Assembly: GCA_903970435.1 (NCBI GenBank) | Contig: CAJCIS010000193.1 | Span: 1-50,838, forward strand | DNA: 50,838 nt | DNA from: Acidobacteriota bacterium | Lineage (GTDB): Bacteria; Pseudomonadota; Alphaproteobacteria; Acetobacterales; Acetobacteraceae | Reading direction: 5' to 3' | Shown: positions 1-50,838 of the stretch, in pieces | How positions within the stretch are numbered: the stretch's first letter is position 1 | Layout: every line of letters begins with the position of its first letter | Notes under the pieces: generated by a model | The model's input: the letters and a program-made list of their open reading frames with translations, nothing else | The model's database searches: none | What the model was told of the DNA's origin: nothing | Translations under genes and position numbers: made by a program

Positions 1-1203
1 GGCGACCGGCGCGCCGTCTCCGACCGCGCCTGGAACGTGTTGCGGCACCGCCGCCGGATCACCTGGTGGCTGGAGAGGGCGCAGGCGCTGCCCACGCCAA
101 GATTGCTGATCGCCGCCAGCCTGCTGCTGGAGGGCTGGACACTGGAGGGGGTGGAGCAATCATTTTCCGGCGGCCAGTTCGCCGCGGCGCGGTTGCTGCC
201 GCCGGAGCGCGCGGCCCTGCGGGGGCTGGAAGGGCGCACGCCGGAACACCCCGCCATGCCGCCCGCAGTGCGGGTGGAAATCCCCGACTGGGTTTTTGCG
301 CCGCTGCACGCGCGGTTCGGGCGCGATACCGAAGCCGAGCTGACGGCGCTCACCACCCCGGCCCCGCTCGACCTCCGTGTGAACCTCTTGAAAGCCAGCC
401 GGGACGAAGCACAGGCAGCACTTCTTGCGGAAGGGATCGAGACCACGCCCACGCCCTATTCACCGTGGGGCCTGCGCATTCCCACCCGGCGCGCGCTGAC
501 GACGGGCCCCGCCTTCCAGTCGGGCCTGGTGGAAATCCAGGACGAAGGATCGCAGCTCGTGGCGGCCCTGGTGGGGGCTGCGCCGGGGATGCGGGTGGCC
601 GACTGGTGCGCCGGCGCGGGCGGCAAGACCCTGGCCGTCGCCATGACGATGAAGAATCGCGGCCACATCGTGGCGTGCGACGTGCACGAAAGGCGCCTGG
701 AGGCGGCGGTGAAACGCCTGCGCCGCGCCGGCGTGCACAACGTGGAACAGCACGTCATCGCGGTTGGCGACAAATGGGCGAAGCGTCAGGAGAAGAAATT
801 TGATCGGGTCCTGGTTGACGCACCCTGCACAGGATGTGGAACATGGCGGCGCAACCCGGACGCACGCGCCCGCCTGACCGAAACCGACCTCCAGCAACTG
901 GTGGTCAAGCAGGCCGCCATCCTGGATGCGGCCGCGCGCCTGACCAAGCCGGGCGGCCGACTGATTTATGCCACCTGCAGCCTGCTGCCGGCGGAGAACG
1001 AGGACCAGGTGCACGCCTTCATCCAACGCCACCCCGACTTTGCCGTCCTGCCGCTCGCAGATGCGTGGTCCCCCGCGAACGCGCCCGCGGGCGGCGGCCC
1101 GTTCCTGTCGCTGACGCCGCTGCGCCACGACACGGACGGGTTTTTCGGCGCCGTGCTGGTGCGCGCCAAGCCGGCGGCGGTGCCGGTGGCGCCCGCGCCG
1201 TGA
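1..1203 (+). CDS. rsmB: 16S rRNA (cytosine-C5) methyltransferase, RsmB/NOP family (5' partial)
   Basis: This is an S-adenosylmethionine-dependent RNA m5C methyltransferase. The family member RsmB methylates C967 of 16S rRNA in the cytoplasm. The reading frame is open from the first base of the window, so the true start lies upstream. Visible motifs are the SAM-binding loop WCAGAGGKTLA (codons near base 605), motif IV DAPCTGCGTWRRNPD (near base 820), whose cysteine releases the product, and motif VI ATCSLLPAENE (near base 970), which holds the catalytic cysteine. The N-terminal part resembles the NusB-like RNA-binding region of the family. A GNAT gene follows 10 bases downstream and is probably co-transcribed. 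RsmF-like paralogues are the only realistic alternative. Confidence 0.9.
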   Translation, partial: GDRRAVSDRAWNVLRHRRRITWWLERAQALPTPRLLIAASLLLEGWTLEGVEQSFSGGQFAAARLLPPERAALRGLEGRTPEHPAMPPAVRVEIPDWVFAPLHARFGRDTEAELTALTTPAPLDLRVNLLKASRDEAQAALLAEGIETTPTPYSPWGLRIPTRRALTTGPAFQSGLVEIQDEGSQLVAALVGAAPGMRVADWCAGAGGKTLAVAMTMKNRGHIVACDVHERRLEAAVKRLRRAGVHNVEQHVIAVGDKWAKRQEKKFDRVLVDAPCTGCGTWRRNPDARARLTETDLQQLVVKQAAILDAAARLTKPGGRLIYATCSLLPAENEDQVHAFIQRHPDFAVLPLADAWSPANAPAGGGPFLSLTPLRHDTDGFFGAVLVRAKPAAVPVAPAP

Positions 1204-7766: not shown

Positions 7767-7826
7767 TCCACGGCGGCCGTCACATGGATACCGACATTCG
7801 GCGCACGATCTACGAAACCCGGCTAT

Positions 7827-7962
7827 TAGCGCATTTTCAGCCTGACTGGAATCGCCCGATGGAGACGCCCAACGTGAGGCCGATACGAATGCTCTGCAGA
7901 CAACAACCTGGAGCGGCCCGACGGGCACCCGACGATTTTCCAGTCAGGCTGAGGCCGCTCTA
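7827..7962. mobile_element. 136-bp MITE, copy 1
   Basis: This non-coding element has TA at both ends and imperfect terminal inverted repeats. Both ends read TAG(A/C)GC, four divergent bases, then TCAGCCTGACTGGAA. TA flanks suggest mobilisation by an IS630/Tc1-mariner-type transposase, which is absent here. It lies 20 bases from the 3' end of the glycosyltransferase gene. Two more copies of identical length are at 35786 and 39054. Confidence 0.8.
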
Positions 7963-7981
7963 GTTTAACGGCCTGCGGTGT

Positions 7982-27775: not shown

Positions 27776-29109
27776 CCCAGGTTCTCATGCCGGCTTTGTC
27801 GCCCACCATGACCGAGGGCAAGCTGGCGCGCTGGCTCAAGGCCATCGGCGAGCAGGTGCGCGCCGGCGATGTCATTGCGGAAATCGAAACCGACAAGGCC
27901 ACCATGGAAGTGGAGGCGGTGGATGAAGGGCGCCTGGAGCAAATCCTGGTTCCCGAAGGCACCGAAGGCGTTGCGGTCAATACGCCGATTGCCGTGCTGG
28001 CCAACGGCGATGCAAAGAATGTTGCGACCAAGTCGGCGCCTGCCGCCGCCAAAGCGGAAGCACGGCCGGCCGCGCCGGCACACACGGCCGCACCCGCTAA
28101 CGAGGTTGTCGCCCCGGAACAGGATAACGCCCCCGGCAAGCCCATCACGGTGCGCGAGGCCCTGCGCGACGCCATGGCGGCCGAACTGGAACGCGACGGC
28201 ACCGTGTTCCTGATGGGCGAGGAGGTGGCGCAATACCAGGGCGCCTACAAGATCAGCCAGGGCCTGCTGGATCGTTTCGGCCCCAAGCGCATCATCGACA
28301 TGCCGATCACCGAGCACGGTTTTGCCGGCATGGCCGTCGGCGCCGCGATGAACGGTCTGCGCCCGATCGTCGAATTCATGACGTTCAATTTCGCCATGCA
28401 GGCGATCGACCAGATCATCAATTCGGCGGCGAAAACCCGCTACATGTCCGGCGGCCAGATGGGCTGCCCGATTGTGTTCCGTGGCCCCAACGGCGCCGCC
28501 TCGCGCGTCGCCGCCCAGCACAGCCAGGATTATGCGAGCTGGTACGCGCATGTGCCTGGCTTGAAAGTCATCGCGCCCTATTCCGCGGCCGATGCAAAAG
28601 GTTTGTTACGGGCCGCGATCCGCGATCCGAACCCGGTGATTTTCCTGGAGAACGAAATCCTCTACGGCCACACATTCCCGTGCCCGGACGATGCCGATTT
28701 CATCCTGCCAATCGGCCGCGCGAAAATCGAACGCGCCGGCCGGCACGTGACGATCGTCAGTTACTCGATCGGCGTCGGCACCGCATTGGCGGCCGCCGAC
28801 GTGCTGGCGGGGCAGGGGGTGGAGGCGGAGGTGATCAATTTGCGCACCCTGCGGCCGCTGGATATCGGCACGGTGGTGGAGAGCGTCAAACGCACCAGCC
28901 GCCTGGTGACGGTGGAGGAGGGCTGGCCCTATGCCGGCATTGGCGCCGAGGTGGCGATGCAGGTGATCGAGCAGGCGTTCGATTGGCTGGACGCGCCGCC
29001 GGTGCGGGTGGCGGGCGCGGATGTGCCGTTGCCTTATGCGGCAAATCTGGAAAAACTGGCTTTGCCGCAGGCGGTTTGGGTGGTGGAGGCAGTTAGAAAG
29101 ATGGTTTAA
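27772..29109 (+). CDS. pdhB: Pyruvate dehydrogenase E1 beta subunit with N-terminal lipoyl domain
   Basis: This 445-residue fusion has residues 1-80 as a lipoyl domain with the modification site [16 protein letters not shown] Pro/Ala-rich linker follows, then the E1-beta domain from about residue 120 ([41 protein letters not shown]-like text, FRGPNGA). Lipoyl fusion to E1-beta is known in alphaproteobacteria and may help channel acetyl groups. Four-base overlap with pdhA. A paired hairpin repeat begins eight bases after the stop and separates it from pdhC, which is odd inside an operon that needs balanced subunits. Confidence 0.95.
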
Positions 29110-29249: not shown

Positions 29250-30545
29250 ATGCCCACAAACATTCTCATGCCGGCCCTGTCGCCCACCATGACCGAAGGC
29301 ACCCTCGCGCGCTGGCTCAAGGCCGAAGGCGATACGATCCGCGCCGGCGACGTCATTGCCGAAATCGAAACCGACAAGGCCACCATGGAAGTCGAAGCGG
29401 TCGATGAAGGTGTGCTCGGCAAAATCCTGGTCCCCGACGGCACCCAGGGCGTGAAAGTCAACGACCCGATCGCCGTGCTGGTCGACGCCGGCGAGACCGC
29501 CGCCGCCAAGCCGCAAGCGGCCAAGCCCACGCCGCCAGAACCGCCCAAGGCGGCGCAACCGCCTGTGCCACCGGCAGCGCCGCCAGCGCCGCCGGCGCCG
29601 GGGGTACCGGCCAACGGCCATATTGCATCCGAGCGTGTGTTCGCCTCGCCCCTCGCGCGCCGCATCGCGCAGCAGGCCGGCATCGATCTCAACCAGATAA
29701 AAGGCACGGGTCCGAACGGACGTATCGTCCGTGCCGATATCGAAAGCCTGCACGCAGCGCCCACGGCGCCCGCGCCTGCCGCGGCGCCCCCGCCGGCGGC
29801 ACCTGTGCAAGCGCCGCCCGTGCCCGCGCCGGCGCCCCCCATCACCGCGCCGCACGAACGCGTGCGGCTCAACAATGTTCGCAAGGTCACCGCCCGGCGC
29901 CTGACCCAAGCCAAGCAGACAATTCCGCATTTCTACGTCAGCATCGATGTCGAACTCGATGCGCTGCTGAAACTGCGCGCCGACCTCAACGCCAAATCAC
30001 CCAAAGATGCCGCCGGCGCCTTCAAACTTTCGGTCAACGATCTGCTGATCAAGGCCGCCGCCGTCACCTTGCGGCGCGTGCCCAAGGTGAATGCCAGCTT
30101 CGCCGAGGACGCAATCATTCTCTACGGCGACGTCGACATTTCCATGGCCGTCTCCATTCCGGACGGCCTGATCACCCCCATCATCCGCCAGGCGGACCGC
30201 AAAGGTCTCGCCGCCATCAGCAATGAGGCCCGCGACCTCATCGAGCGCGCGCGCACTGGCAAGCTCAAGCCGGACGAATATCAGGGCGGCGGCTTCTCCA
30301 TCAGCAACATGGGCATGTACGGCGTGAAGGAATTCGCCGCCATCATCAACCCGCCCCAGGCCGGCATCCTGGCCGTGGCGGCCGGCGAGAAGCGGCCGGT
30401 GGTCAGGGACGGCCAACTCGCTATCGCCACGGTCATGACGGTGACGCTGTCGGTCGATCATCGCGCGGTGGACGGGGCGCTTGCCGCCGAGTTTGTGTCG
30501 GTGTTCAAATCGATTGTGGAAGATCCTCTCAGTTTGATGCTGTGA
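29250..30545 (+). CDS. pdhC: Dihydrolipoamide acetyltransferase (E2) of pyruvate dehydrogenase
   Basis: This 431-residue E2 core protein has an N-terminal lipoyl domain (1-78, Lys in [15 protein letters not shown]) nearly identical to the one on PdhB. A long Pro/Ala linker follows, then a peripheral subunit-binding domain ([20 protein letters not shown], then [14 protein letters not shown]). After a second Pro/Ala linker comes the catalytic domain, with [14 protein letters not shown] and the active-site HRAVDG in [16 protein letters not shown]. It moves acetyl from lipoate to CoA. AGGA lies seven bases before the ATG. The stop overlaps the GTG of the following GNAT gene. Confidence 0.95.
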
Positions 30546-35489: not shown

Positions 35490-35788
35490 CCTTCTCCGCC
35501 GCAGCTCTCGACCAGATCACAGCCCTTCGTCGGTACTACGCAGCCAAGGAGCGGCCCGAGGCGATTCGCAACCTTGCCCGCGCCATCGCTGAAGCGAGTC
35601 AGGCGATTGCCGCGGGTCGAGGCGTCCCTGCCCCACGGCCCTACCCCGCCCTCGCCCAGCCCGGCCGCGCCTGGATCTATGTCCAGCGGTACTGGTTTCG
35701 CTACGCCGCGACCACGCCACCGATTGTGCTTGGCGTGTACTATGACACGGCCGATATTCCAGGCCGCCTTTTGGGCGATGGATGTTAG
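35477..35788 (+). CDS. RelE/ParE-family toxin with a non-standard start
   Basis: This frame of 103 residues shows the ParE-type pattern: a helical N-terminus (VTFSAAALDQITALRRYYAA, then RPEAIRNLARAIAEASQA), the turn PRPYPALAQPGRAWIYVQRYWFRY, and a final strand (PIVLGVYYDTAD). Such toxins attack gyrase or mRNA. No ATG, GTG or TTG exists between the upstream in-frame stop and the conserved start. The codon at the expected position is ATC (35477), one base from ATG. It either starts poorly or is silenced. The stop codon TAG lies exactly on the TA junction of a MITE, but the stop would also exist without the insertion. Confidence 0.65.
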   Translation: MARVTFSAAALDQITALRRYYAAKERPEAIRNLARAIAEASQAIAAGRGVPAPRPYPALAQPGRAWIYVQRYWFRYAATTPPIVLGVYYDTADIPGRLLGDGC

Positions 35789-35921
35789 AACATTTTCAGC
35801 CTGACTGGAATCGCCCGATGGAGACGCGCAGCTTGAGGCTGATACAAATGCTCTGCAGACAACAACGTCGAGCGGCCCGGCGGGCATCCGACGATTTTCC
35901 AGTCAGGCTGAGGCCGCTCTA
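35786..35921. mobile_element. 136-bp MITE, copy 2
   Basis: This has the same length and ends as copy 1 (TA...TA; inner TCAGCCTGACTGGAA at both ends). It landed on the toxin stop codon. Internal sequence is highly similar to copies 1 and 3, and there is no coding capacity. Confidence 0.8.
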
Positions 35922-35981
35922 GGAACTGGTCCTCATTCTGCGAAGCAGCATTCACGCGGCCGTCCTATACGTTCAACGACC

Positions 35982-39002: not shown

Positions 39003-39288
39003 TTCTTTTCTGAAGAAAGGAACCAAAAGTATTATATTGAGCCTGGCGGCACTTAGAGCATTTTCAGCCTGACCGGAATCGCCCGATGGAGACGCGCAGC
39101 TTGAGGCTGATACAAAGGCTCTGCAAACAACAACCTGGAGCGGCCCGGCTTGCATCCGAGGATTTTCCAGTCAGGCCGAGGCCGCTCTAAGAAAAAGGAA
39201 GTAGGCTCAATGCCCTGTCCACGCCTGACTTCCTTGAGCGCCGCTAGGCTCGATATAATCCTTTTGGTTGCTTTCTTCAGAAGAGAAC
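39002..39288. repeat. Hairpin repeat with palindromic core, split by a MITE (locus 12, B/B)
   Basis: The left hairpin 39002-39023 (one G-T wobble) and right hairpin 39267-39288 enclose a palindrome (GAGCCTGGCGGCACTTA ... GCGCCGCTAGGCTC). Its left arm is interrupted at TA by MITE copy 3 (39054-39189). Without the MITE the element is about 153 bases. The palindromic core matches locus 4. Confidence 0.8.
39054..39189. mobile_element. 136-bp MITE, copy 3 (nested)
   Basis: Same ends as the other copies, TA at both junctions. It sits inside the left palindromic arm of locus 12. The host arms align across the insertion if one TA is removed, so the TA target duplication is directly visible. Confidence 0.85.
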
Positions 39289-44268: not shown

Positions 44269-44395
44269 GTTCTTTTTTGAAAAAAAGAACCAAAAAACTT
44301 TTGCTCTTGATGCAATCCCCAACGTATCGGGCATGGCCCGGGTCCTTGTGCAGGCGCAGGGAAAAGTTTTTTGGTTCTTTTTTTCAAAAAAGAAC
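44269..44395. repeat. Hairpin repeat, full paired element (locus 14, A/A, inverted core)
   Basis: Hairpins lie at 44269-44290 and 44374-44395, and flanking TAAGGAAG/CTTCCTTA extend the symmetry. The core contains TGATGCAATCCCC, the complement of the core in locus 3. It lies between convergent genes. The right hairpin contains the stop codon of the MocA-like gene. Confidence 0.88.
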
Positions 44396-44983
44396 TGCTT
44401 CCTTACGCGGCGTATCAAAGTCCCTTAGCACCGCATCCATCTCGAACTCGATTTCAGCCACATGCGCTGCATGCCGGCGGAATAATCCCCGTGCGCCAGT
44501 ATCCCCCGTCACCCCTTCCATGTCCGCAAAGAAACGTCGATCCCACAGCACCGGGTTGCCGCGCTGCCCTCGGTGCGTCGGCACAATAATCAGGCGCCCC
44601 TCGCCCGCATCATACGCGTCCAGCAGCCGGTCGATCATGGCTGCACTCACCAGCGGCATGTCGCCGAGGCACACCAGCACGGCCGCCGCATCCTCCGGCA
44701 GAGCGCGCAGCCCGGCGCGCAGGCTGGCCGACAAACCCTCGGCGTAATCCGGCGCCAGGACGGTGACCACCGCACGCGATCCAAGTGCCGCCGCCACCTC
44801 CGCCGCCTGGTGCCCCAACACCACCAGAACCGGCGCGGCGCGGCTGCCCAGCACAGCATCGGCGACCCGCGCCACCATCGCCACGCCATCGCCATCCGGC
44901 AGCAGCAACTTGTTGGCCGGTGCCATGCGGCTGGAAAGTCCGGCCGCCAGGATAAGGCCGGTAACCCGCGGGCGCGCCATCAT
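44384..44983 (-). CDS. MocA-like molybdenum cofactor nucleotidyltransferase
   Basis: This 199-residue NTP transferase has the N-terminal nucleotide loop LILAAGLSSRMAPANKLLLP, the metal-binding LVCLGDMPLVSAAMID and the GNPVLWDRRFF segment typical of MobA/MocA. Next to XdhC genes it most likely makes the cytidine dinucleotide form of the cofactor for the hydroxylase. Its start overlaps the XdhC stop by four bases (ATGA). The last residues (EAVLF) and the stop come from the hairpin repeat, as in the FAD subunit gene. The operon converges with the coxGMSL-type genes. Confidence 0.88.
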   Translation of the reverse strand: MMARPRVTGLILAAGLSSRMAPANKLLLPDGDGVAMVARVADAVLGSRAAPVLVVLGHQAAEVAAALGSRAVVTVLAPDYAEGLSASLRAGLRALPEDAAAVLVCLGDMPLVSAAMIDRLLDAYDAGEGRLIIVPTHRGQRGNPVLWDRRFFADMEGVTGDTGARGLFRRHAAHVAEIEFEMDAVLRDFDTPRKEAVLF

Positions 44984-45759
44984 GCCAACCGTCCCTGATC
45001 TTGACTCATCGGGCATGCCTCCGGCGGCACGCCGTCACGCGAATGCGTGCTGCGCACGACGCCCCCGGTCGCCGAAGGCAACGCGCGGCCGTTCCGCCGC
45101 ACGGCGATCAATTGCGCCAGGATGCTCACCGCGATTTCGGCCACCGTGACGGCCCCGATCGGCAACCCGACCGGGCCGTGAATCCGCGCAATGGCGTCGG
45201 CGCCGTGGCCAAGCGCCGCCAGACGCTCCAGCCGCGCCGCCTGGGTTTTGCGGCTGCCGAGGGCACCGACGTAGAAAGCATCCGTGCGCAAGGCGAGGTC
45301 CAGCGCCGGGTCGTCCAGCTTGGAATCGTGCGTCAGCGTCACCACCGCGGTGTGCGCATCGGGCGCCAAGGCGCGCAACGCCTCGTCCGGCCAGCGCGGT
45401 TCGATCGTGACCTCGGGAAAGCGTTCCGCGGTGGCGTAGCCGCGGCGCGGATCGATGATGGTGACGGCAAACCCCGCGGTGGCCGCCATCGGCGCCAGCG
45501 CCTGGGCGACATGCACGGCGCCCACGATGAACAGCCGCGGCGGCGGCGCATGCACGTGCAGGAACCAGGACTCGCCATCGCAGTCCATGATACGCGACTC
45601 GTCCCGCGCCGCCGCGCGCGCCGCTTCGGCCTGCAGGGCAGCCGGCGCCGCCGCGTCCGGCAGCCTTAACTGGGCGCCGTCGGGCAGGCGCGTGGCGAGC
45701 ACCTCCACGCGCCGCGCCGCACGCGCGGCGCGCAGCGCGGCCAGTGTTTCCGGCGTCAC
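44980..45759 (-). CDS. XdhC family protein, C-terminal (Rossmann) part
   Basis: This 259-residue protein contains the XdhC C-terminal Rossmann domain: FIVGAVHVAQALAPMAATAGF, DPRRGYATAERFP, VVTLTHDSKLDDPALDLAL, YVGALGSRKTQAARLERL and GPVGLPIGAVTVAEIAVSI. XdhC proteins bind and insert sulfurated molybdenum cofactor into hydroxylases. Its GTG overlaps the stop of the separate N-terminal XdhC gene, so the function is split over two proteins. The C-terminal tail (RSTHSRDGVPPE) is encoded by a 41-base repeat that is also half of the large palindrome at 49.2 kb, so the native end has been replaced. Confidence 0.88.
   Translation of the reverse strand: MTPETLAALRAARAARRVEVLATRLPDGAQLRLPDAAAPAALQAEAARAAARDESRIMDCDGESWFLHVHAPPPRLFIVGAVHVAQALAPMAATAGFAVTIIDPRRGYATAERFPEVTIEPRWPDEALRALAPDAHTAVVTLTHDSKLDDPALDLALRTDAFYVGALGSRKTQAARLERLAALGHGADAIARIHGPVGLPIGAVTVAEIAVSILAQLIAVRRNGRALPSATGGVVRSTHSRDGVPPEACPMSQDQGRLA
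45021..45061. repeat. 41-bp repeat shared with the large palindrome
   Basis: Identical to 49293-49333. It contains an internal hairpin CACGC-GAAT-GCGTG. It lies within the 3' end of the xdhC-like gene and codes for its tail. Confidence 0.85.
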
Positions 45760-46076
45760 CCGAGGCGCTCGAGCAGAACCGTCAGCTTGCCACCGCACGC
45801 CAGGCCCACTTCCCAGGCGCGTTCGTTGGTAATGCCGAACTCCAGCACCTGCGTGGCACCGTCGGCAAAGGTGCGCGCGGCAGCATCGGCCACCGCGGCC
45901 TCTACACAGCCGCCGCTCACCGACCCCGCCATGCGGCCCGACCGGGTGAGCACCAGGCGGCTGCCGCGCGGCCGCGGCGAACTGCCCCAGGTGTCAACGA
46001 CGGTGGCGATGGCGACGGTTTCGCCGGAATCGTGCCAGGCGGCGGCGGTCTCCAGCATGTCTTCCGTGTCGATCAT
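45756..46076 (-). CDS. XdhC family protein, N-terminal (XdhC/CoxI) domain
   Basis: This 106-residue protein is the stand-alone XdhC/CoxI domain: VAIATVVDTWGSSPRPRGSR, SGRMAGSVSGGCVEAAV with the conserved SGGCVE cysteine, and VGLACGGKLTVLLE at the end. It works with the downstream Rossmann part in cofactor maturation. Overlap GTGA couples the two. The 127-base gap to the divergent M24 gene has a solo hairpin repeat, and it must also contain promoters for both directions. Confidence 0.9.
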   Translation of the reverse strand: MIDTEDMLETAAAWHDSGETVAIATVVDTWGSSPRPRGSRLVLTRSGRMAGSVSGGCVEAAVADAAARTFADGATQVLEFGITNERAWEVGLACGGKLTVLLERLG

Positions 46077-46145
46077 TATAGGCCTGCCTGCGGTTGCGGC
46101 ATTGAGATTGCGTTACTAAGAAAGGGAGGCAAGGGTAAGGAAGAA

Positions 46146-46179
46146 GTTCTTTTTTGAAAAAAGAACCAAAAAACTTTTG
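46146..46179. repeat. Hairpin repeat, single half (locus 15, A)
   Basis: A 21-nt hairpin (46146-46166) and mini-hairpin (46167-46179). This is the only copy between two divergently transcribed genes, a position where a terminator would not be expected. Confidence 0.85.
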
Positions 46180-46202
46180 TCTGTTTGAAGGTGTAGGCTT
46201 GC

Positions 46203-46901
46203 ATGGATTTGGATCATTCCTCACGCGAGTGCGGTGCGAGGCTGCTTGAGGCGCAAGCCCAAGCGAGCGCCCTGTTCGATGAGATCGAGCACCGCCTGAT
46301 CCGGGCCGGCATTACGGAAAGCCAACTGAACACGGAAATCTACACACTGGCCGCCGACATGTTCGGTGTGACCACGCATTGGCACAAGCGCGTCATCCGC
46401 GCCGGCCCGAATACCTTGCAGCCTTATAACGAAGATCCGCCCGACCGGTTGATCGATGCGGATGACATTCTTTTTGTCGATCTGGGGCCGGTGTTCGCCG
46501 CGTGGGAAGCCGATTTCGGCCGCACGTTTGTTCTGGGGAGCGATCCCGTCAAGCACCGGCTTAGAAACGATCTTCAGCCGATCTTCCAGGCGGCAAAGGC
46601 ACGGTTCGAGGCTGACCCGGACATGACGGGTGCGACGCTCTATGAAATCGCCTGCGATCTGGCCACAGAATCAGGCTGGGAATTCGGCGGCCGGATCGCC
46701 GGCCATACGGTCGGCGAATTTCCGCACGAGCGCATCCCGGGTGACCGGATCAGTTTTTTCATTACGCGCGGCAATCACCTCCCCCTGCGCCGCGCCGACG
46801 CGGCGGGCCGCCCCTATCACTGGATATTGGAAATCCACCTGGTAGACCGCGCCCGCCAGATCGGCGGCTTTTTCGAGGAACTTCTGACGAGTCCGGGCTG
46901 A
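46203..46901 (+). CDS. M24 family metallopeptidase-like protein
   Basis: This 232-residue protein has the pita-bread fold of aminopeptidase P/methionine aminopeptidase. The metal ligands can be read as the Asp in FVDLGPVFAAWEADFGRTF (two Asp), the His in GHTVGEFPHE and the Glu in ILEIHLVDR. It lacks the N-terminal domain of prolidase-type enzymes and is short. A peptidase or creatinase-like role is possible, but the substrate is unknown. It starts 23 bases after a hairpin repeat and stops five bases before the next one. Confidence 0.85.
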   Translation: MDLDHSSRECGARLLEAQAQASALFDEIEHRLIRAGITESQLNTEIYTLAADMFGVTTHWHKRVIRAGPNTLQPYNEDPPDRLIDADDILFVDLGPVFAAWEADFGRTFVLGSDPVKHRLRNDLQPIFQAAKARFEADPDMTGATLYEIACDLATESGWEFGGRIAGHTVGEFPHERIPGDRISFFITRGNHLPLRRADAAGRPYHWILEIHLVDRARQIGGFFEELLTSPG

Positions 46902-46905
46902 AACG

Positions 46906-47005
46906 CAAAAAACTTTTGCTCTGTTCGGTGCATGCCGCGTCGCAGGTGGGCTTAAGCCCACCCAAAAAGTCAAAAGTTTTTTGGTTCTTTTTTTCAAAAA
47001 AGAAC
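46906..47005. repeat. Hairpin repeat, paired element lacking left hairpin (locus 16, A)
   Basis: The left side keeps CAAAAAACTTTTG (46906-46918). The core contains a GTGGGCTTAAGCCCAC palindrome (about 46946-46961). The right hairpin is at 46984-47005. It sits between the M24 and dehydrogenase genes. Confidence 0.82.
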
Positions 47006-47037
47006 TGCTTCCTTCCTCCTCTTCACCGGCCATCATC

Positions 47038-48555
47038 ATGCAAACCCCCGAAATCCTGGCCCGCCTGGGCGTGGACCTCAACACCCTCACCGGCCACGAT
47101 CTGACCGCGCGTTCGCCGATCACCGGCCGGACCACAGCATCCCTGACCGCCACGCCGCCATCCCAAGCCAATGCCGCCATAGACCGCGCACACGACGCCT
47201 TCCGTTGTTGGCGGCAAATTCCGCCGCCGAGGCGGGGTGAATTCGTTCGCCGGCTCGGTGAGGAATTGCGCGCCGCAAAGCCCGATCTGGGTCATCTCGT
47301 GACCATCGAAACAGGAAAGTGCATTTCCGAAGCCCTGGGCGAGGTACAGGAAATGATCGACATTTGCGATTTCGCGGCCGGGCTTTCGCGCCAGCTCTAC
47401 GGCCTTACCATCGCCACCGAACGGCCCGAGCACCGTATGATGGAGACCTGGCATCCGCTGGGTGTCGTCGGCGTTATTTCCGCGTTCAACTTTCCGGTTG
47501 CGGTATGGTCGTGGAACGCCGCTCTGGCCCTGGTGTGCGGCAACAGCGTGGTGTGGAAGCCCTCGGAAAAGGCGCTGCTGGCGGCGATGGCGGTTCACGC
47601 GCTGACATTACGCACGGCGGCTCGTTTCGGCGCCGATGCACCGCCCGGGCTGTGCACCCTGCTGATCGGCGGCAGCGACCTCGGTGCGGCGCTGGTGGAC
47701 CATCCACGCGTGGCCCTGGTGTCGGCCACCGGCTCCACCGCCATGGGCCGCGCCGTGGCGCCGCGCCTGGCGGCGCGATTCGCCCGCGCGGTGCTGGAAC
47801 TGGGCGGCAACAACGCCGCCATCGTCGCGCCTAGCGCGGACCTCGACCTCACCGTGCGTGCGGTGGCCTTCGCCGCCATGGGCACCGCCGGCCAGCGCTG
47901 CACGACCCTGCGCCGCCTGTTCGTCCACGACGCCATTTACGACATCCTCCTGCCGCGCCTGCGCGCGGCCTACGCCTCGGTTACCGTCGGCGATCCGCGC
48001 GCCCCCGAAACCCTGGTCGGGCCGCTGATCGACCAGGCCGCCTTCCAGGCCATGCAGGGTGCCATCGCCGAGGCGCGCGAAACGGGCGGCGTGGTGACGG
48101 GCGGGCAACGGACCTGCGCGCAGGCCGGCGACGCGGCGTTCTACGTTCGCCCCGCGCTCGTCGAACTGACCGCGCAGATCCCGGTGGTGAAGCGCGAAAC
48201 GTTTGCCCCGATCCTCTACGTCATGCGCATCCCCGATCTGGCCACCGCCATCGCCATGCAGAACGATGTCGCGCAGGGCCTGTCATCGTCCATCTTCACC
48301 AACGACATGCGGGAGGCGGAACTGTTCCTGTCGGCGGAGGGCTCGGACTGCGGCATCGCCAACGTCAATCTGGGGCCGTCCGGGGCCGAGATCGGCGGCG
48401 CGTTCGGCGGCGAAAAGGACACCGGCGGCGGCCGCGAGGCCGGCTCGGACTGCTGGAAGGCCTATATGCGCCGGGCAACCAACACGGTGAACTACGGGCG
48501 TGCGTTGCCGCTCGCGCAGGGCGTTTCTTTCAGCGTAGCAAAAACAAACAGTTAA
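47038..48555 (+). CDS. Aldehyde dehydrogenase, ALDH7/AmaB-like (aminoadipate semialdehyde type)
   Basis: This 505-residue NAD(P)-dependent dehydrogenase has the NAD-binding VVGVISAFNFPVAVWSW, the loop LVSATGSTAMGRAV, the catalytic Glu in VLELGGNNAAIVAP and the catalytic Cys in MGTAGQRCTTLRRLF. The late segment GAEIGGAFGGEKDTGGGREAG with SDCWKAYMRR is typical of antiquitin/AmaB, which oxidises piperideine-6-carboxylate in lysine breakdown. No other lysine genes are adjacent, so the substrate is inference. The start ATG 47038 is 32 bases after the hairpin repeat. No strong ribosome site. Confidence 0.92.
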   Translation: MQTPEILARLGVDLNTLTGHDLTARSPITGRTTASLTATPPSQANAAIDRAHDAFRCWRQIPPPRRGEFVRRLGEELRAAKPDLGHLVTIETGKCISEALGEVQEMIDICDFAAGLSRQLYGLTIATERPEHRMMETWHPLGVVGVISAFNFPVAVWSWNAALALVCGNSVVWKPSEKALLAAMAVHALTLRTAARFGADAPPGLCTLLIGGSDLGAALVDHPRVALVSATGSTAMGRAVAPRLAARFARAVLELGGNNAAIVAPSADLDLTVRAVAFAAMGTAGQRCTTLRRLFVHDAIYDILLPRLRAAYASVTVGDPRAPETLVGPLIDQAAFQAMQGAIAEARETGGVVTGGQRTCAQAGDAAFYVRPALVELTAQIPVVKRETFAPILYVMRIPDLATAIAMQNDVAQGLSSSIFTNDMREAELFLSAEGSDCGIANVNLGPSGAEIGGAFGGEKDTGGGREAGSDCWKAYMRRATNTVNYGRALPLAQGVSFSVAKTNS

Positions 48556-48563
48556 GGAACGAT

Positions 48564-48598
48564 GTTCTTTTCTAAAGAAAAGAACCATAAGACTTTTG
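48564..48598. repeat. Hairpin repeat, single half (locus 17, B)
   Basis: A hairpin with AA in the turn (48564-48585) and an imperfect mini-hairpin. It is eight bases after the dehydrogenase stop. A GC-rich terminator for the opposite strand follows. Confidence 0.82.
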
Positions 48599-48616
48599 TC
48601 CGTGACCCGTCATAAC

Positions 48617-48645
48617 AAAACCCGCCTTGGTGCCCCGGCGGGTTC
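48617..48645 (-). terminator. Intrinsic terminator of the small secreted peptide gene
   Basis: On the minus strand AACCCGCC pairs with GGCGGGTT (positions 48619-48626 and 48637-48644), followed by TTTTGTTAT. It lies 25 bases after the stop of the 60-residue gene. Confidence 0.75.
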
Positions 48646-48669
48646 GTTATGGCAGGGCAACCGGGCGCG

Positions 48670-48852
48670 TTAGCCGCCGCAGTTTGGATAGCACTTGGGA
48701 ATTTCCATCGCGGCGACGACCAGGGGCGCATTGTTCAGCGTTCCATGGAAGTAACCAACAGAAGTCGTTGCCGCAGCGCTCGCGCTGTAGAAGCTTTCCA
48801 TCGGGGCTGCTGAAACTGTCAGTAAAGCCGCGAACATCGCAAGTGCCTTCAT
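48670..48852 (-). CDS. Small secreted protein (60 residues)
   Basis: This short gene has good supporting signals: GGAGGG eight bases before the ATG, and its own intrinsic terminator downstream. The N-terminus is a signal peptide (MKALAMFAALLTVSAAP), with cleavage probably near SASAA. The mature part is about 30 residues ending in PKCYPNCGG, which could form one disulfide or a metal knot. I recognise no family. It may act in the periplasm or outside the cell. A long, gene-free upstream region (48853 onward) suggests it has its own regulation. Confidence 0.75.
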   Translation of the reverse strand: MKALAMFAALLTVSAAPMESFYSASAAATTSVGYFHGTLNNAPLVVAAMEIPKCYPNCGG

Positions 48853-49201
48853 GAGTAAACCCTCCGTTTAATTGCGCTCAGACCGTTTTGACCGGGATTT
48901 CCCCCCCGGCGACGTCAGCAGTAGCTGATTCTTGGGCAAAGCGCTACCCCCGGTAGTGTAAAAGTAGCGGAATCGCCGAAAAAGTTTCTGTCAGTTGCAC
49001 ATCAGGTTGTGGCACGGCGAAATTCCCATGGCAGCAGTAGAATAAACCGCACCGCGCACCCCGGCGAACTGGCGGGAAATCAGCCGGATGCCCGAATCAA
49101 GGGAAGCCTACGGCGGCGCTGGTTGCAACGCTGAGCGGAACGTTAGGGGAACGCTCACCGCAACGGTGGCGGCGCCAACCGGCTTGATGGATGGCTCATA
49201 C
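48853..49201. other. Intergenic region upstream of the small secreted peptide
   Basis: No convincing gene. It should contain the promoter of the minus-strand peptide gene, but I see no clear boxes. Short repeats such as GCTACCCCCGGTAG (a small hairpin near 48942) are present. Confidence 0.4.
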
Positions 49202-49330
49202 CGTGCGCAGCACGCATTCGCGTGACGGCGTGCCGCCGTCGTCTCAAGCGCTGCGCGGCACAATAGTTTTGTGCCGCGCAGCGCATAAGACGCCGGCGGC
49301 ACGCCGTCACGCGAATGCGTGCTGCGCACG
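49202..49330. repeat. Large near-perfect palindrome
   Basis: Arms of about 62 bases (49202-49263 and 49269-49330) with only a few mismatches and a 5-base loop. Both strands read almost the same frame. One distal part occurs again at 45021-45061. It stands 41 bases beyond the 3' end of the glycosyltransferase gene and could end its transcript as a very stable hairpin. Confidence 0.88.
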
Positions 49331-49371
49331 ACGGCATGGGTGCATCGACGAAGAGGGCTGCCTTGCTTGCC

Positions 49372-50598
49372 TTACGGCCCCGCCGCAATGACTTTCCGAA
49401 TGAGCGCCTCGTACCCGGCGATATAATCCGCCATCACAAGGTTTTTCTCGGCCCAGGCGCGGGCGGCGCGGCGGAGGCGTTTGTTGAGGGCGTCGTCTTC
49501 GAGCAGGGTGAGGGCGGCGTCGGCGACGCGGTCGGGGTCGAGGAAGGGGGCGAGCAGGCCGGTCTTGCGGTGGGTGAGGAATTCGCGGACGGGTTCGGTG
49601 TCGCTGCCGACCAGGGCGCAGCCGGTGGACATGGCTTCGCGCAGCGACCAGCTGGCGACGAAGGGGTAGGTGAGGTAGATGTGCACGTCCGATCGTTGCA
49701 GGATCTTGACATAGGTTTCGTAGGTGACGCGGCCGGTGAAATGAACCCGGCTGAGGTCGAGGCGGCCTTGCATTTCGTCGAGCATTTTCTGCCGCCAGGT
49801 GCCTTCCGTGGGGCGGGCGCCGTAGCTGACCATGTCGCCGCCGACGAGGATGATGCGCGCGTCCGGGCGCGCGTTCAGGATGCGGGGCAAGGCGCGCATC
49901 ATGGTGTGAAAGCCGCGATAGGGTTCGAGGTCGCGCACCACGTAGGTCACGAGTTTATCGGCGGGGTCGATGCGGTAGCCGCCGAGCGAGACGGGGCGGG
50001 CGCGCAGCTTGGGGTTGGGGGCGCAGACCTCGAGATTTACGCCTTCGTGCAGCACGTCGATATTGTCGCGCGACCAGGCCGGATAGGTGGAATGCTGGAA
50101 GTGGGTGGGCGTGAAACCGTGGCCGGGGTTGGTCAGTGTCAGCAGGTTGACCGCGTTCTTGGCGCGCACGCGGGCGAGTTCGGACGGGCCGAGCGGGAAT
50201 TCGGGGTCGAAGCCGACATCGAGACCTGTTTCGTGATAGTAATATTCATGGTAGCCGAGCAGCGGCGTTTTCGGCCAGACGTCCTGGATGTTGAGGAGTT
50301 CGCCCCAGCCATGGTGGCCGATGATGATATCGGGCATGAAACCGAGCGATTTGACGCTGGCGGCGGCGCGCGCCACGCCGTCGGCGCGGATCATGGCGAG
50401 TTCGAAATCACGCGCGTCGCGGTGGGTGTTTTTCGCCGGCGCCTGCGGCAGGCCGTGCACCACCTTGCGCACGCCGGGCAGGGTGGTGGGGCGGTTTTCG
50501 GTGACGAACAGAAGGTCATGCTGTTCCTGTGCCGCGAGATGGCGCAACAGGTGCAGGAACTGACCCGGAAAGTTCTGATGGACGAACAAATATCGCAT
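49372..50598 (-). CDS. Glycosyltransferase family 4 protein
   Basis: This 408-residue GT-B enzyme begins with MRYLFVHQNFPGQFLHLLRH, the usual start of this group. Further features are DIIIGHHGWGELLNI, the hinge-region YVVRDLEPYRGFHTMMRAL, ARIILVGGDMVSYG, and the donor-binding block VHIYLTYPFVASWSLREAMS with TGCALVGSDTEPVREF. It probably adds a sugar in polysaccharide or lipopolysaccharide synthesis. The ATG 50598 is preferred. An in-frame ATG at 50619 adds seven residues. No other polysaccharide genes are seen within the window, but they may lie beyond the edge. Confidence 0.9.
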   Translation of the reverse strand: MRYLFVHQNFPGQFLHLLRHLAAQEQHDLLFVTENRPTTLPGVRKVVHGLPQAPAKNTHRDARDFELAMIRADGVARAAASVKSLGFMPDIIIGHHGWGELLNIQDVWPKTPLLGYHEYYYHETGLDVGFDPEFPLGPSELARVRAKNAVNLLTLTNPGHGFTPTHFQHSTYPAWSRDNIDVLHEGVNLEVCAPNPKLRARPVSLGGYRIDPADKLVTYVVRDLEPYRGFHTMMRALPRILNARPDARIILVGGDMVSYGARPTEGTWRQKMLDEMQGRLDLSRVHFTGRVTYETYVKILQRSDVHIYLTYPFVASWSLREAMSTGCALVGSDTEPVREFLTHRKTGLLAPFLDPDRVADAALTLLEDDALNKRLRRAARAWAEKNLVMADYIAGYEALIRKVIAAGP

Positions 50599-50677
50599 GC
50601 TGGGGCGGCGGTGCACCATCTTTTCTGATCGTGCGGGCGACGCACCGGCGGCTTGCGCCGCCGGTTGCGTCTGCCGC

Positions 50678-50838
50678 CTATTTCTTCCGCGATGTGGGTT
50701 TGAATGTGAGTTTCGGTGTTGGTTTCGGCGGCACTTTTTCGGGCGGTTTCGGCGGCGCATTCCTGGCGGGCGCCGGCTTGGCCGCGGCGGCAGGTGTTGC
50801 GGCAGGTGTTGCGGCCTTGGCGGCCGGTTTGGCGGCGG
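50678..50838 (-). CDS. C-terminal end of an Ala/Pro/Lys-rich protein (partial)
   Basis: The minus strand is open from the window edge to a TAG at 50678. The 52 visible residues are low complexity (AAKPAAKAATPAATPAAAAK, then PKPPEKVPPKPTPKLTFKPT and a basic end SRKK). Such tails occur in histone-like, TonB-like or envelope-spanning proteins. The body of the protein lies outside, so no function can be given. It would be transcribed ahead of the glycosyltransferase gene. Confidence 0.6.
   Translation of the reverse strand, partial: AAKPAAKAATPAATPAAAAKPAPARNAPPKPPEKVPPKPTPKLTFKPTSRKK

What the first reader, a model, noticed from the sequence alone, without database searches (positions are those of the whole stretch)
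49202..49333. Very long palindrome whose half is copied into the xdhC gene
Arms of about 62 bases with few mismatches form an extreme hairpin. A 41-base block from its outer right part is identical to the 3' end of the xdhC-like coding region, where it encodes the tail RSTHSRDGVPPE. Both strands of the palindrome read the same peptide. This looks like another mobile palindromic repeat able to fuse to genes.
Basis: seen in the sequence. Interest (0 to 1): 0.55.

Follow-up and report, generated by a model that had tools for sequence, protein, structure and literature searches.

The report
Nested palindromic repeat with gene-tail copies
The long palindrome is one copy of a family of short hairpin-forming DNA repeats that have spread through this bacterium's genome, mostly just past the ends of genes and nested inside one another, and two copies now code for the same extra tail on two unrelated enzymes.

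Summary
Arms 49202-49263 / 49269-49330 are 62 nt, 95% complementary, with a 5-nt gap; the 41-base block at 45021-45061 in xdhC is identical. The palindrome belongs to a repeat family: 42 places in this genome match it at E<=1e-8, a lower bound. The family is modular and nested: variable outer tags, a GGGGG..CCCCC hairpin (147 sites), optional inner hairpins, and a central inverted pair of one REP-like hairpin whose 4-nt loop is hypervariable while its stem is nearly fixed. Simpler forms without the inner layers exist in the genome, and the same outer tags also enclose an unrelated AT-rich hairpin family. Repeats sit at gene 3' ends (139 of 186 element-gene boundaries; 100 of those within 30 nt of a stop). 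xdhC carries a complete collapsed element, about 29 codons, in frame. rlmN carries the same peptide (VVRSTHSRDGVPP). None of 16 XdhC and 19 RlmN relatives read has it. No RAYT-type transposase and no target-site duplication was found. Best reading: a composite REP/BIME-like repeat; nesting by insertion at palindrome centres is likely but inferred. New variant of a known kind.

The parts
49202..49263 (+). left arm of the palindrome: C hairpin module + B + REP-like hairpin with loop TCAA
   Evidence: the repeat finder; module alignment
49269..49330 (-). right arm, same modules inverted, REP loop TTAT (the two loops of this copy differ)
49175..49201 (+). probable outer tag (CCAACCGGCTTGAT..GGCTCAT), like tags of other copies; the GGGGG/CCCCC D hairpin is missing in this copy
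   Evidence: alignment with C164, C213, C289 copies; boundary is my reading
49331..49374 (-). right outer part, diverged, reaching the stop codon of the glycosyltransferase-like gene
   Evidence: boundary uncertain
49372..50760 (-). neighbouring ORF (462 aa, glycosyltransferase-like by eye); the element lies just past its 3' end
   Evidence: ORF; no family search was run on it
45021..45061 (-). 41-base block identical to the palindrome's right outer part, inside xdhC, coding (V)VRSTHSRDGVPPE
44995..45081 (-). whole repeat-derived insert in xdhC, 29 codons LPSATGGVVRSTHSRDGVPPEACPMSQDQ, with type-3 tags on both sides and the D hairpin deleted
   Evidence: coordinates; tags compared by eye with L181 and L184 and L039, L040, L043
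44980..45798 (-). xdhC ORF (PF13478 XdhC_C at residues 89-230), 272 aa with the repeat-coded tail; the longest start at 45798 was used

Best explanation
The palindrome is one copy of a composite, nested palindromic repeat that works like REP/BIME/REPIN elements. Shown: it is built of small modules in mirror order, its centre is an inverted pair of one REP-like hairpin (stem GTGCCGCCGGCGT / GCGCTGCGCGGCAC around a variable loop), copies are dispersed and concentrated just past stop codons, and simpler forms lacking inner layers exist. Also shown: when an element lies at the very 3' end of a gene in the right frame it becomes a C-terminal tail in the reading frame (XdhC, RlmN). Inferred: the elements spread as non-autonomous units by a trans-acting activity not found in the assembly; new hairpin pairs tended to land at the centre of existing palindromes, giving the Russian-doll structure; homologous exchange between copies then mixed arms and tags. 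As RNA the hairpins probably protect or end the upstream transcript, which is why copies at 3' ends survive.
For: Copies: 86 match rows, 42 places at E<=1e-8 by my count, only 40 of 188 first-look candidates scored; the xdhC copy comes on top. D hairpin: 147 sites at <=2 mismatches, 0 in the reversed control; present in 24 of 100 genomes of the family, 203 sites in the one other species of the genus searched. Layers: among the 100 D sites listed of 147, facing pairs stand 44-45 apart (simple centre ACCGGCGGCACGCCGGT; C123, C195, C159, C289), 112-113 (plus the REP pair; C213, C218, C91, C123), 128 (C54), 159 (plus the C module on both sides; C164). A 79-bp form has outer tags only (C57), and the same tags enclose an AT-rich hairpin family in C82, C30 and C257. 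Arm fold with the loop at the variable site. Loop entropy 0.6-1.7 bits against 0-0.4 in the stem for 54 arms; with only one side anchored, loop 0.9-1.8 against 0.2-0.9. Positions: 139 of 186 element-gene boundaries are gene ends, 100 of 139 within 30 nt; 37 convergent against 5 divergent settings of 76. Tails.
Against: No Y1 transposase (RAYT family) in the assembly, although it is only 94% complete. No target-site duplication visible at the ends of complete copies. Mobility is therefore not shown directly, and no close strain was available for an empty-site comparison. Left and right loops agree in 6 of 22 pairs against 2.7 expected (P 0.03), a slight excess that leaves room for fold-back copying. 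Single copies also show other D spacings (55, 60, 65, 68, 90), so the layer classes are not perfectly discrete. Position counts pool several repeat families and rest on a simple GC3 gene caller. Folded alone, the single arm is only modestly better than shuffles (z -1.85) and the C module is not (z -0.05).
Confidence: 0.7

Rival explanations
1. MITE: a miniature transposon with terminal inverted repeats (TNATACC..GGTATNA tags) moved by a DDE or IS110-type transposase.
For: Complete copies end in inverted tags, e.g. TTATACCAATCCGC..GCGGATTGGTATAA (C213); 35 tag sites, 0 in control.
Against: No direct target duplication at complete copies. None of the seven IS110 or DDE_Tnp_1 loci fetched carries the tags or modules. 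Tags vary and are absent from many copies. Other transposase families were not searched.
Confidence: 0.15
2. Fold-back growth: each palindrome was made in place by template switching that copied one arm into its mirror image, with no insertion of new units.
For: Near-perfect 233-bp symmetry in C164 and a slight excess of matching loops.
Against: 16 of 22 copies have different loops in the two arms; arms carry different outer tags and D types in the same copy; the same modules recur dispersed.
Confidence: 0.15
3. Assembly artefact: the assembler folded reads back at repeats, making false palindromes.
For: About half of the 42 places lie at contig ends; 293 contigs.
Against: The window copy and others (C54, C9, C213, C218, C91, C123) have different unique sequence on either side, and arms of one copy often carry different tags. 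The flanks of C164 stop being symmetric outside the element.
Confidence: 0.04
4. Functional 3' hairpins (terminators or mRNA stabilisers) kept by selection rather than mobile elements.
For: Strong 3'-end bias and very stable hairpin.
Against: No T-run follows the stem; same-sequence copies are dispersed and also code for gene tails; the family is nearly confined to one genus in the set searched (2 of 60 genomes match the 133-mer).
Confidence: 0.1

Closest known systems
REPINs / REP doublets (Bertels and Rainey 2011, PMC3116915; abstract and outline seen)
   Same: Two REP-like hairpins in inverted orientation forming a large hairpin, dispersed outside genes; singlets also occur here (C25, C293, C34).
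   Different: No RAYT (Y1_Tnp) found; no GTAG or CGTC end tag; extra layers around the doublet.
CGTC/GTAG REP dimers inserted in palindromes (Di Nocera 2013, PMC3733652; abstract, sections 6, 7, 15 and passages read)
   Same: Dimers inserted inside palindromes in A. variabilis and H. neapolitanus (elements in T. roseum); REPs under 20 bp from gene 3' ends; intragenic REPs; no transposase known for CGTC repeats.
   Different: Here up to four layers, other sequences, and relatives in Acetobacteraceae, where that paper reports CGTC repeats missing.
BIMEs (start of the abstract of PMC2817692 in a search listing; module details recalled)
   Same: Mosaic of short hairpin modules in alternating orientation outside genes.
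   Different: Other modules; strict mirror nesting.
Rickettsia palindromic elements (described in PMC3733652 section 15; otherwise recalled)
   Same: Palindromic repeat read in frame within protein genes.
   Different: Here the two cases are C-terminal tails; no sequence comparison made.

Membership tests
REPIN | inverted doublet of REP hairpins with short spacer | tested here: met
   22 doublets with the REP hairpin on both arms; arm fold
REPIN | cognate RAYT (Y1_Tnp) in the genome | tested here: not met
   PF01797: 0 matches in the 94% complete assembly; control rings in 5 of 14 genomes
GTAG/CGTC-tagged REP | unpaired GTAG or CGTC (variants TGTC, CCTC) at one end of the hairpin | tested here: not met
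   Sequence flanking the folded stem is CCGGC.. and ..AA; CGTC occurs only at the loop side; definition
MITE | terminal inverted repeats | tested here: inconclusive
   Tags TNATACC/GGTATNA in complete copies, absent in many
MITE | target-site duplication | tested here: not met
   Read by eye at complete copies C213, C54, C218, C289
MITE | autonomous IS with the same ends | tested here: inconclusive
   None of seven IS loci matched; only three transposase families (Y1, IS110, DDE_Tnp_1) were searched
BIME-like mosaic | several hairpin modules combined, outside genes, at 3' ends | tested here: met
RPE-like coding palindrome | in frame within otherwise conserved genes, absent in orthologs | tested here: met
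   XdhC: none of 16 relatives read; RlmN: none of 19 relatives read
RPE-like coding palindrome | tail is translated | not testable with these tools
   needs proteomics

The most novel reading that the evidence does not exclude
Russian-doll palindromes: a lineage of Acetobacteraceae-type bacteria in which REP pairs repeatedly insert at the exact centre of older palindromes, so that each repeat is a layered record of successive invasions, growing to near-perfect palindromes of over 230 bp in a genome with no detectable SbcD, and sometimes adding the same peptide tail to unrelated enzymes.
Probability: 0.35. Interest if true: 0.55.

Novelty: new variant of a known kind. Interest (0 to 1): 0.4.

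Why it matters
REP-type repeats of the CGTC class have no known mobilising enzyme (PMC3733652). A layered family with simpler forms side by side in one genome suggests an order of events, and its hypervariable loops give natural tags to trace exchange between copies. The two identical peptides on XdhC and RlmN are a clear case of one repeat supplying the same new C-terminal stretch to unrelated proteins.

Tried and rejected
Rfam search of 44900-49500: only sub-threshold hits, to microRNA precursors and a Ruegeria sRNA, all on the palindrome itself; taken as hairpin-shape matches. RAYT search: none. IS110 and DDE_Tnp_1 loci: present in the genome but not flanked by the modules. Target duplications: looked for by eye, none. 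SbcD (TIGR00619): no match in the own genome or in the same-genus genome, but only 3 of 40 searched genomes exceed the cut-off, so its lack does not track the repeat. An apparent in-frame insertion in a nitrogenase-component-1-like ORF (L039 506-2602) was rejected: the domain starts at residue 226, after the element (about residues 162-202), so the element is probably between two genes. Apparent N-terminal overlaps in L040 and L045 were treated as over-long starts. Paper searches listed no description of this family; six term searches of an open-access library are weak evidence of absence. The abstract of PMC1525189 (REPs as IS targets) was read as background for insertion into palindromes. 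The 52 XdhC loci from named genomes were used only for the listing (nearest: Acetobacteraceae, Acetobacter); their C-termini were not read. Dropped before the position counts: genes under 100 aa, boundaries 400 nt or more away, and element sides within 60 nt of a locus end. Repeat intervals under about 36 nt were dropped.

Full report
What is there. The palindrome at 49202-49330 is real: two 62-nt arms, 95% complementary, 5 nt apart, folding as a single hairpin at -91.3 kcal/mol against a mean of -39.1 for shuffles. The 41-base identity with 45021-45061 is exact, and the block lies inside the xdhC frame (PF13478 XdhC_C at residues 89-230).

It is a repeat family. Searched with the 133-base palindrome, the window's own genome (4.29 Mb, 293 contigs, 94% complete) gives 86 match rows, which I count by hand as 42 places at E<=1e-8; only 40 of 188 candidates were scored, and the xdhC copy itself is not in that list, so this is a lower bound. 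About half of the places lie at contig ends, so the repeat helps to fragment the assembly. Of 60 genomes searched with the same query (the own genome included), only the own genome and the one other species of its genus match at E<=1e-5. The outer GGGGG..CCCCC 'D' hairpin is wider: 147 sites in the own genome at <=2 mismatches, and with a slightly broader pattern at <=1 mismatch 24 of 100 family genomes, with 143 sites in the own genome and 203 in its congener; the reversed control gave 0 in all 100.

Anatomy. From outside in, a complete copy such as C164:4611-4885 reads: tag (TNATACCRATCCGCKTTGA..), a second tag of several types, D hairpin, optional C module (GTCGTGCGCAGCACGCATTCGCGTGAC), then an inverted pair of one hairpin, GTGCCGCCGGCGTC-NNNN-GCGCTGCGCGGCAC, and the same in mirror order. 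The single arm folds with the NNNN in its loop (z -1.85, so on its own a modest signal). In 54 distinct arms the stem is almost fixed and the four loop positions vary (0.6-1.7 bits). A few loop types recur (TCAA 13, TTAT 8, ACAA 8, GAAA 6 of 55), and the two arms of a copy carry the same type in 6 of 22 copies against 2.7 expected (P 0.03): mostly mixed, with a slight excess of matches. Some of these 22 copies lie at contig ends, where assembly errors are possible.

Nesting. Facing D hairpins stand at recurrent distances: 44-45 (simple centre, C123:23543, C195, C159, C289), 112-113 (REP pair inside: C213:14918, C218, C91, C123:41966), 128 (C54), 159 (C164) and, with another core, 171 (C41); single cases at other spacings such as 55, 60, 65, 68 and 90 are shortened copies in my reading. 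One 79-bp form has only the outer tags (C57), and in C82, C30 and C257 the same tags enclose an unrelated AT-rich hairpin. I read this as layers added at the centre. That order of events is inference. Precedents exist: Di Nocera et al. describe REP elements or dimers inserted within palindromes in three bacteria (PMC3733652, section 7).

The window copy has the C module and REP pair on both sides, lacks D, has loops TCAA and TTAT, and lies directly past the 3' end of the ORF 49372-50760.

Position. Using a simple GC3-based gene caller on the repeat intervals found in the fetched own-genome loci and the window (several families pooled, including the AT-rich one), 139 of 186 element-gene boundaries are gene ends; 100 of 139 lie within 30 nt of the stop against 13 of 47 for starts; 37 of 76 elements lie between convergent and 5 between divergent genes. 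The published REPs show the same pattern.

Gene tails. In xdhC the repeat-derived part is about 44995-45081, 29 codons, in frame, before GRLA and the stop, which overlaps an ATG of the next gene. Of 40 genomes searched, 28 (own included) had a match to XdhC; C-termini could be read for 16 relatives and none has the peptide (three further fetched loci were missed by the motif used, and matches beyond the 20 fetched were not read). Independently, contig C241 encodes an RlmN (PF21016, PF04055) continuing ..ESERRKKAAGFAPSTQVVRSTHSRDGVPPASQIG.., which includes D, C and B modules in the same frame; 27 of 30 genomes (own included) matched RlmN and none of the 19 relatives read has the peptide. The rlmN frame runs off the contig, so its true end is unknown. 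Whether the tails are translated is untested.

How it works. Shown: dispersal, modular mirror structure, 3'-end preference, gene tails in frame. Inferred: mobility, nesting by insertion, shuffling of arms by recombination, and a role of the hairpin RNA at transcript ends. No Y1 transposase, no target duplication and no IS with these ends among seven loci were found, so the mover is unknown.

Filing. It works like a REP/BIME/REPIN element. I do not file it as a REPIN or a GTAG/CGTC REP, since the transposase and the end tag were tested and not met. It is a new variant of a known kind, of moderate interest.

Noticed in passing
window 1753, 2343, 11041, 15857, 26412, 29107, 36694, 40927, 44257, 46135, 46971, 48553: A second, AT-rich hairpin family (GTTCTTTTTTGAAAAAAAGAACCAAAAAACTTTT, often in inverted pairs) recurs through the window, often directly at stop codons, e.g. 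the aldehyde-dehydrogenase-like ORF stop at 48555.
   Followed up: partly
window 44384-45016 (-): The mobA-like ORF after xdhC ends in residues (..KEAVLF) read from the AT-rich repeat, so that family too seems to supply a C-terminus.
   Followed up: no
window 7820-7963, 35785-35925, 39047-39193: Three dispersed direct repeats of about 140 bp at 88-92% identity, not examined.
   Followed up: no
window 27782-28000 and 29263-29481: Two direct copies of about 220 bp at 83% identity, not examined.
   Followed up: no
L171, L190, L193-L198, L200, L202: Another D-hairpin family with a different core (GCTAAGGACAAGTCCTTAGAACC..), many copies starting within a few bases of a stop codon.
   Followed up: partly
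L203, L205, L207, L045: Type-3 copies have a different small palindromic core (e.g. GCAAATTGGC..GCCAATTCGC) inside the same GGCGTC/GACGCC arms.
   Followed up: partly
G000 and relatives: No SbcD (TIGR00619) match in the own or same-genus genome; only 3 of 40 genomes exceed the cut-off.
   Followed up: partly
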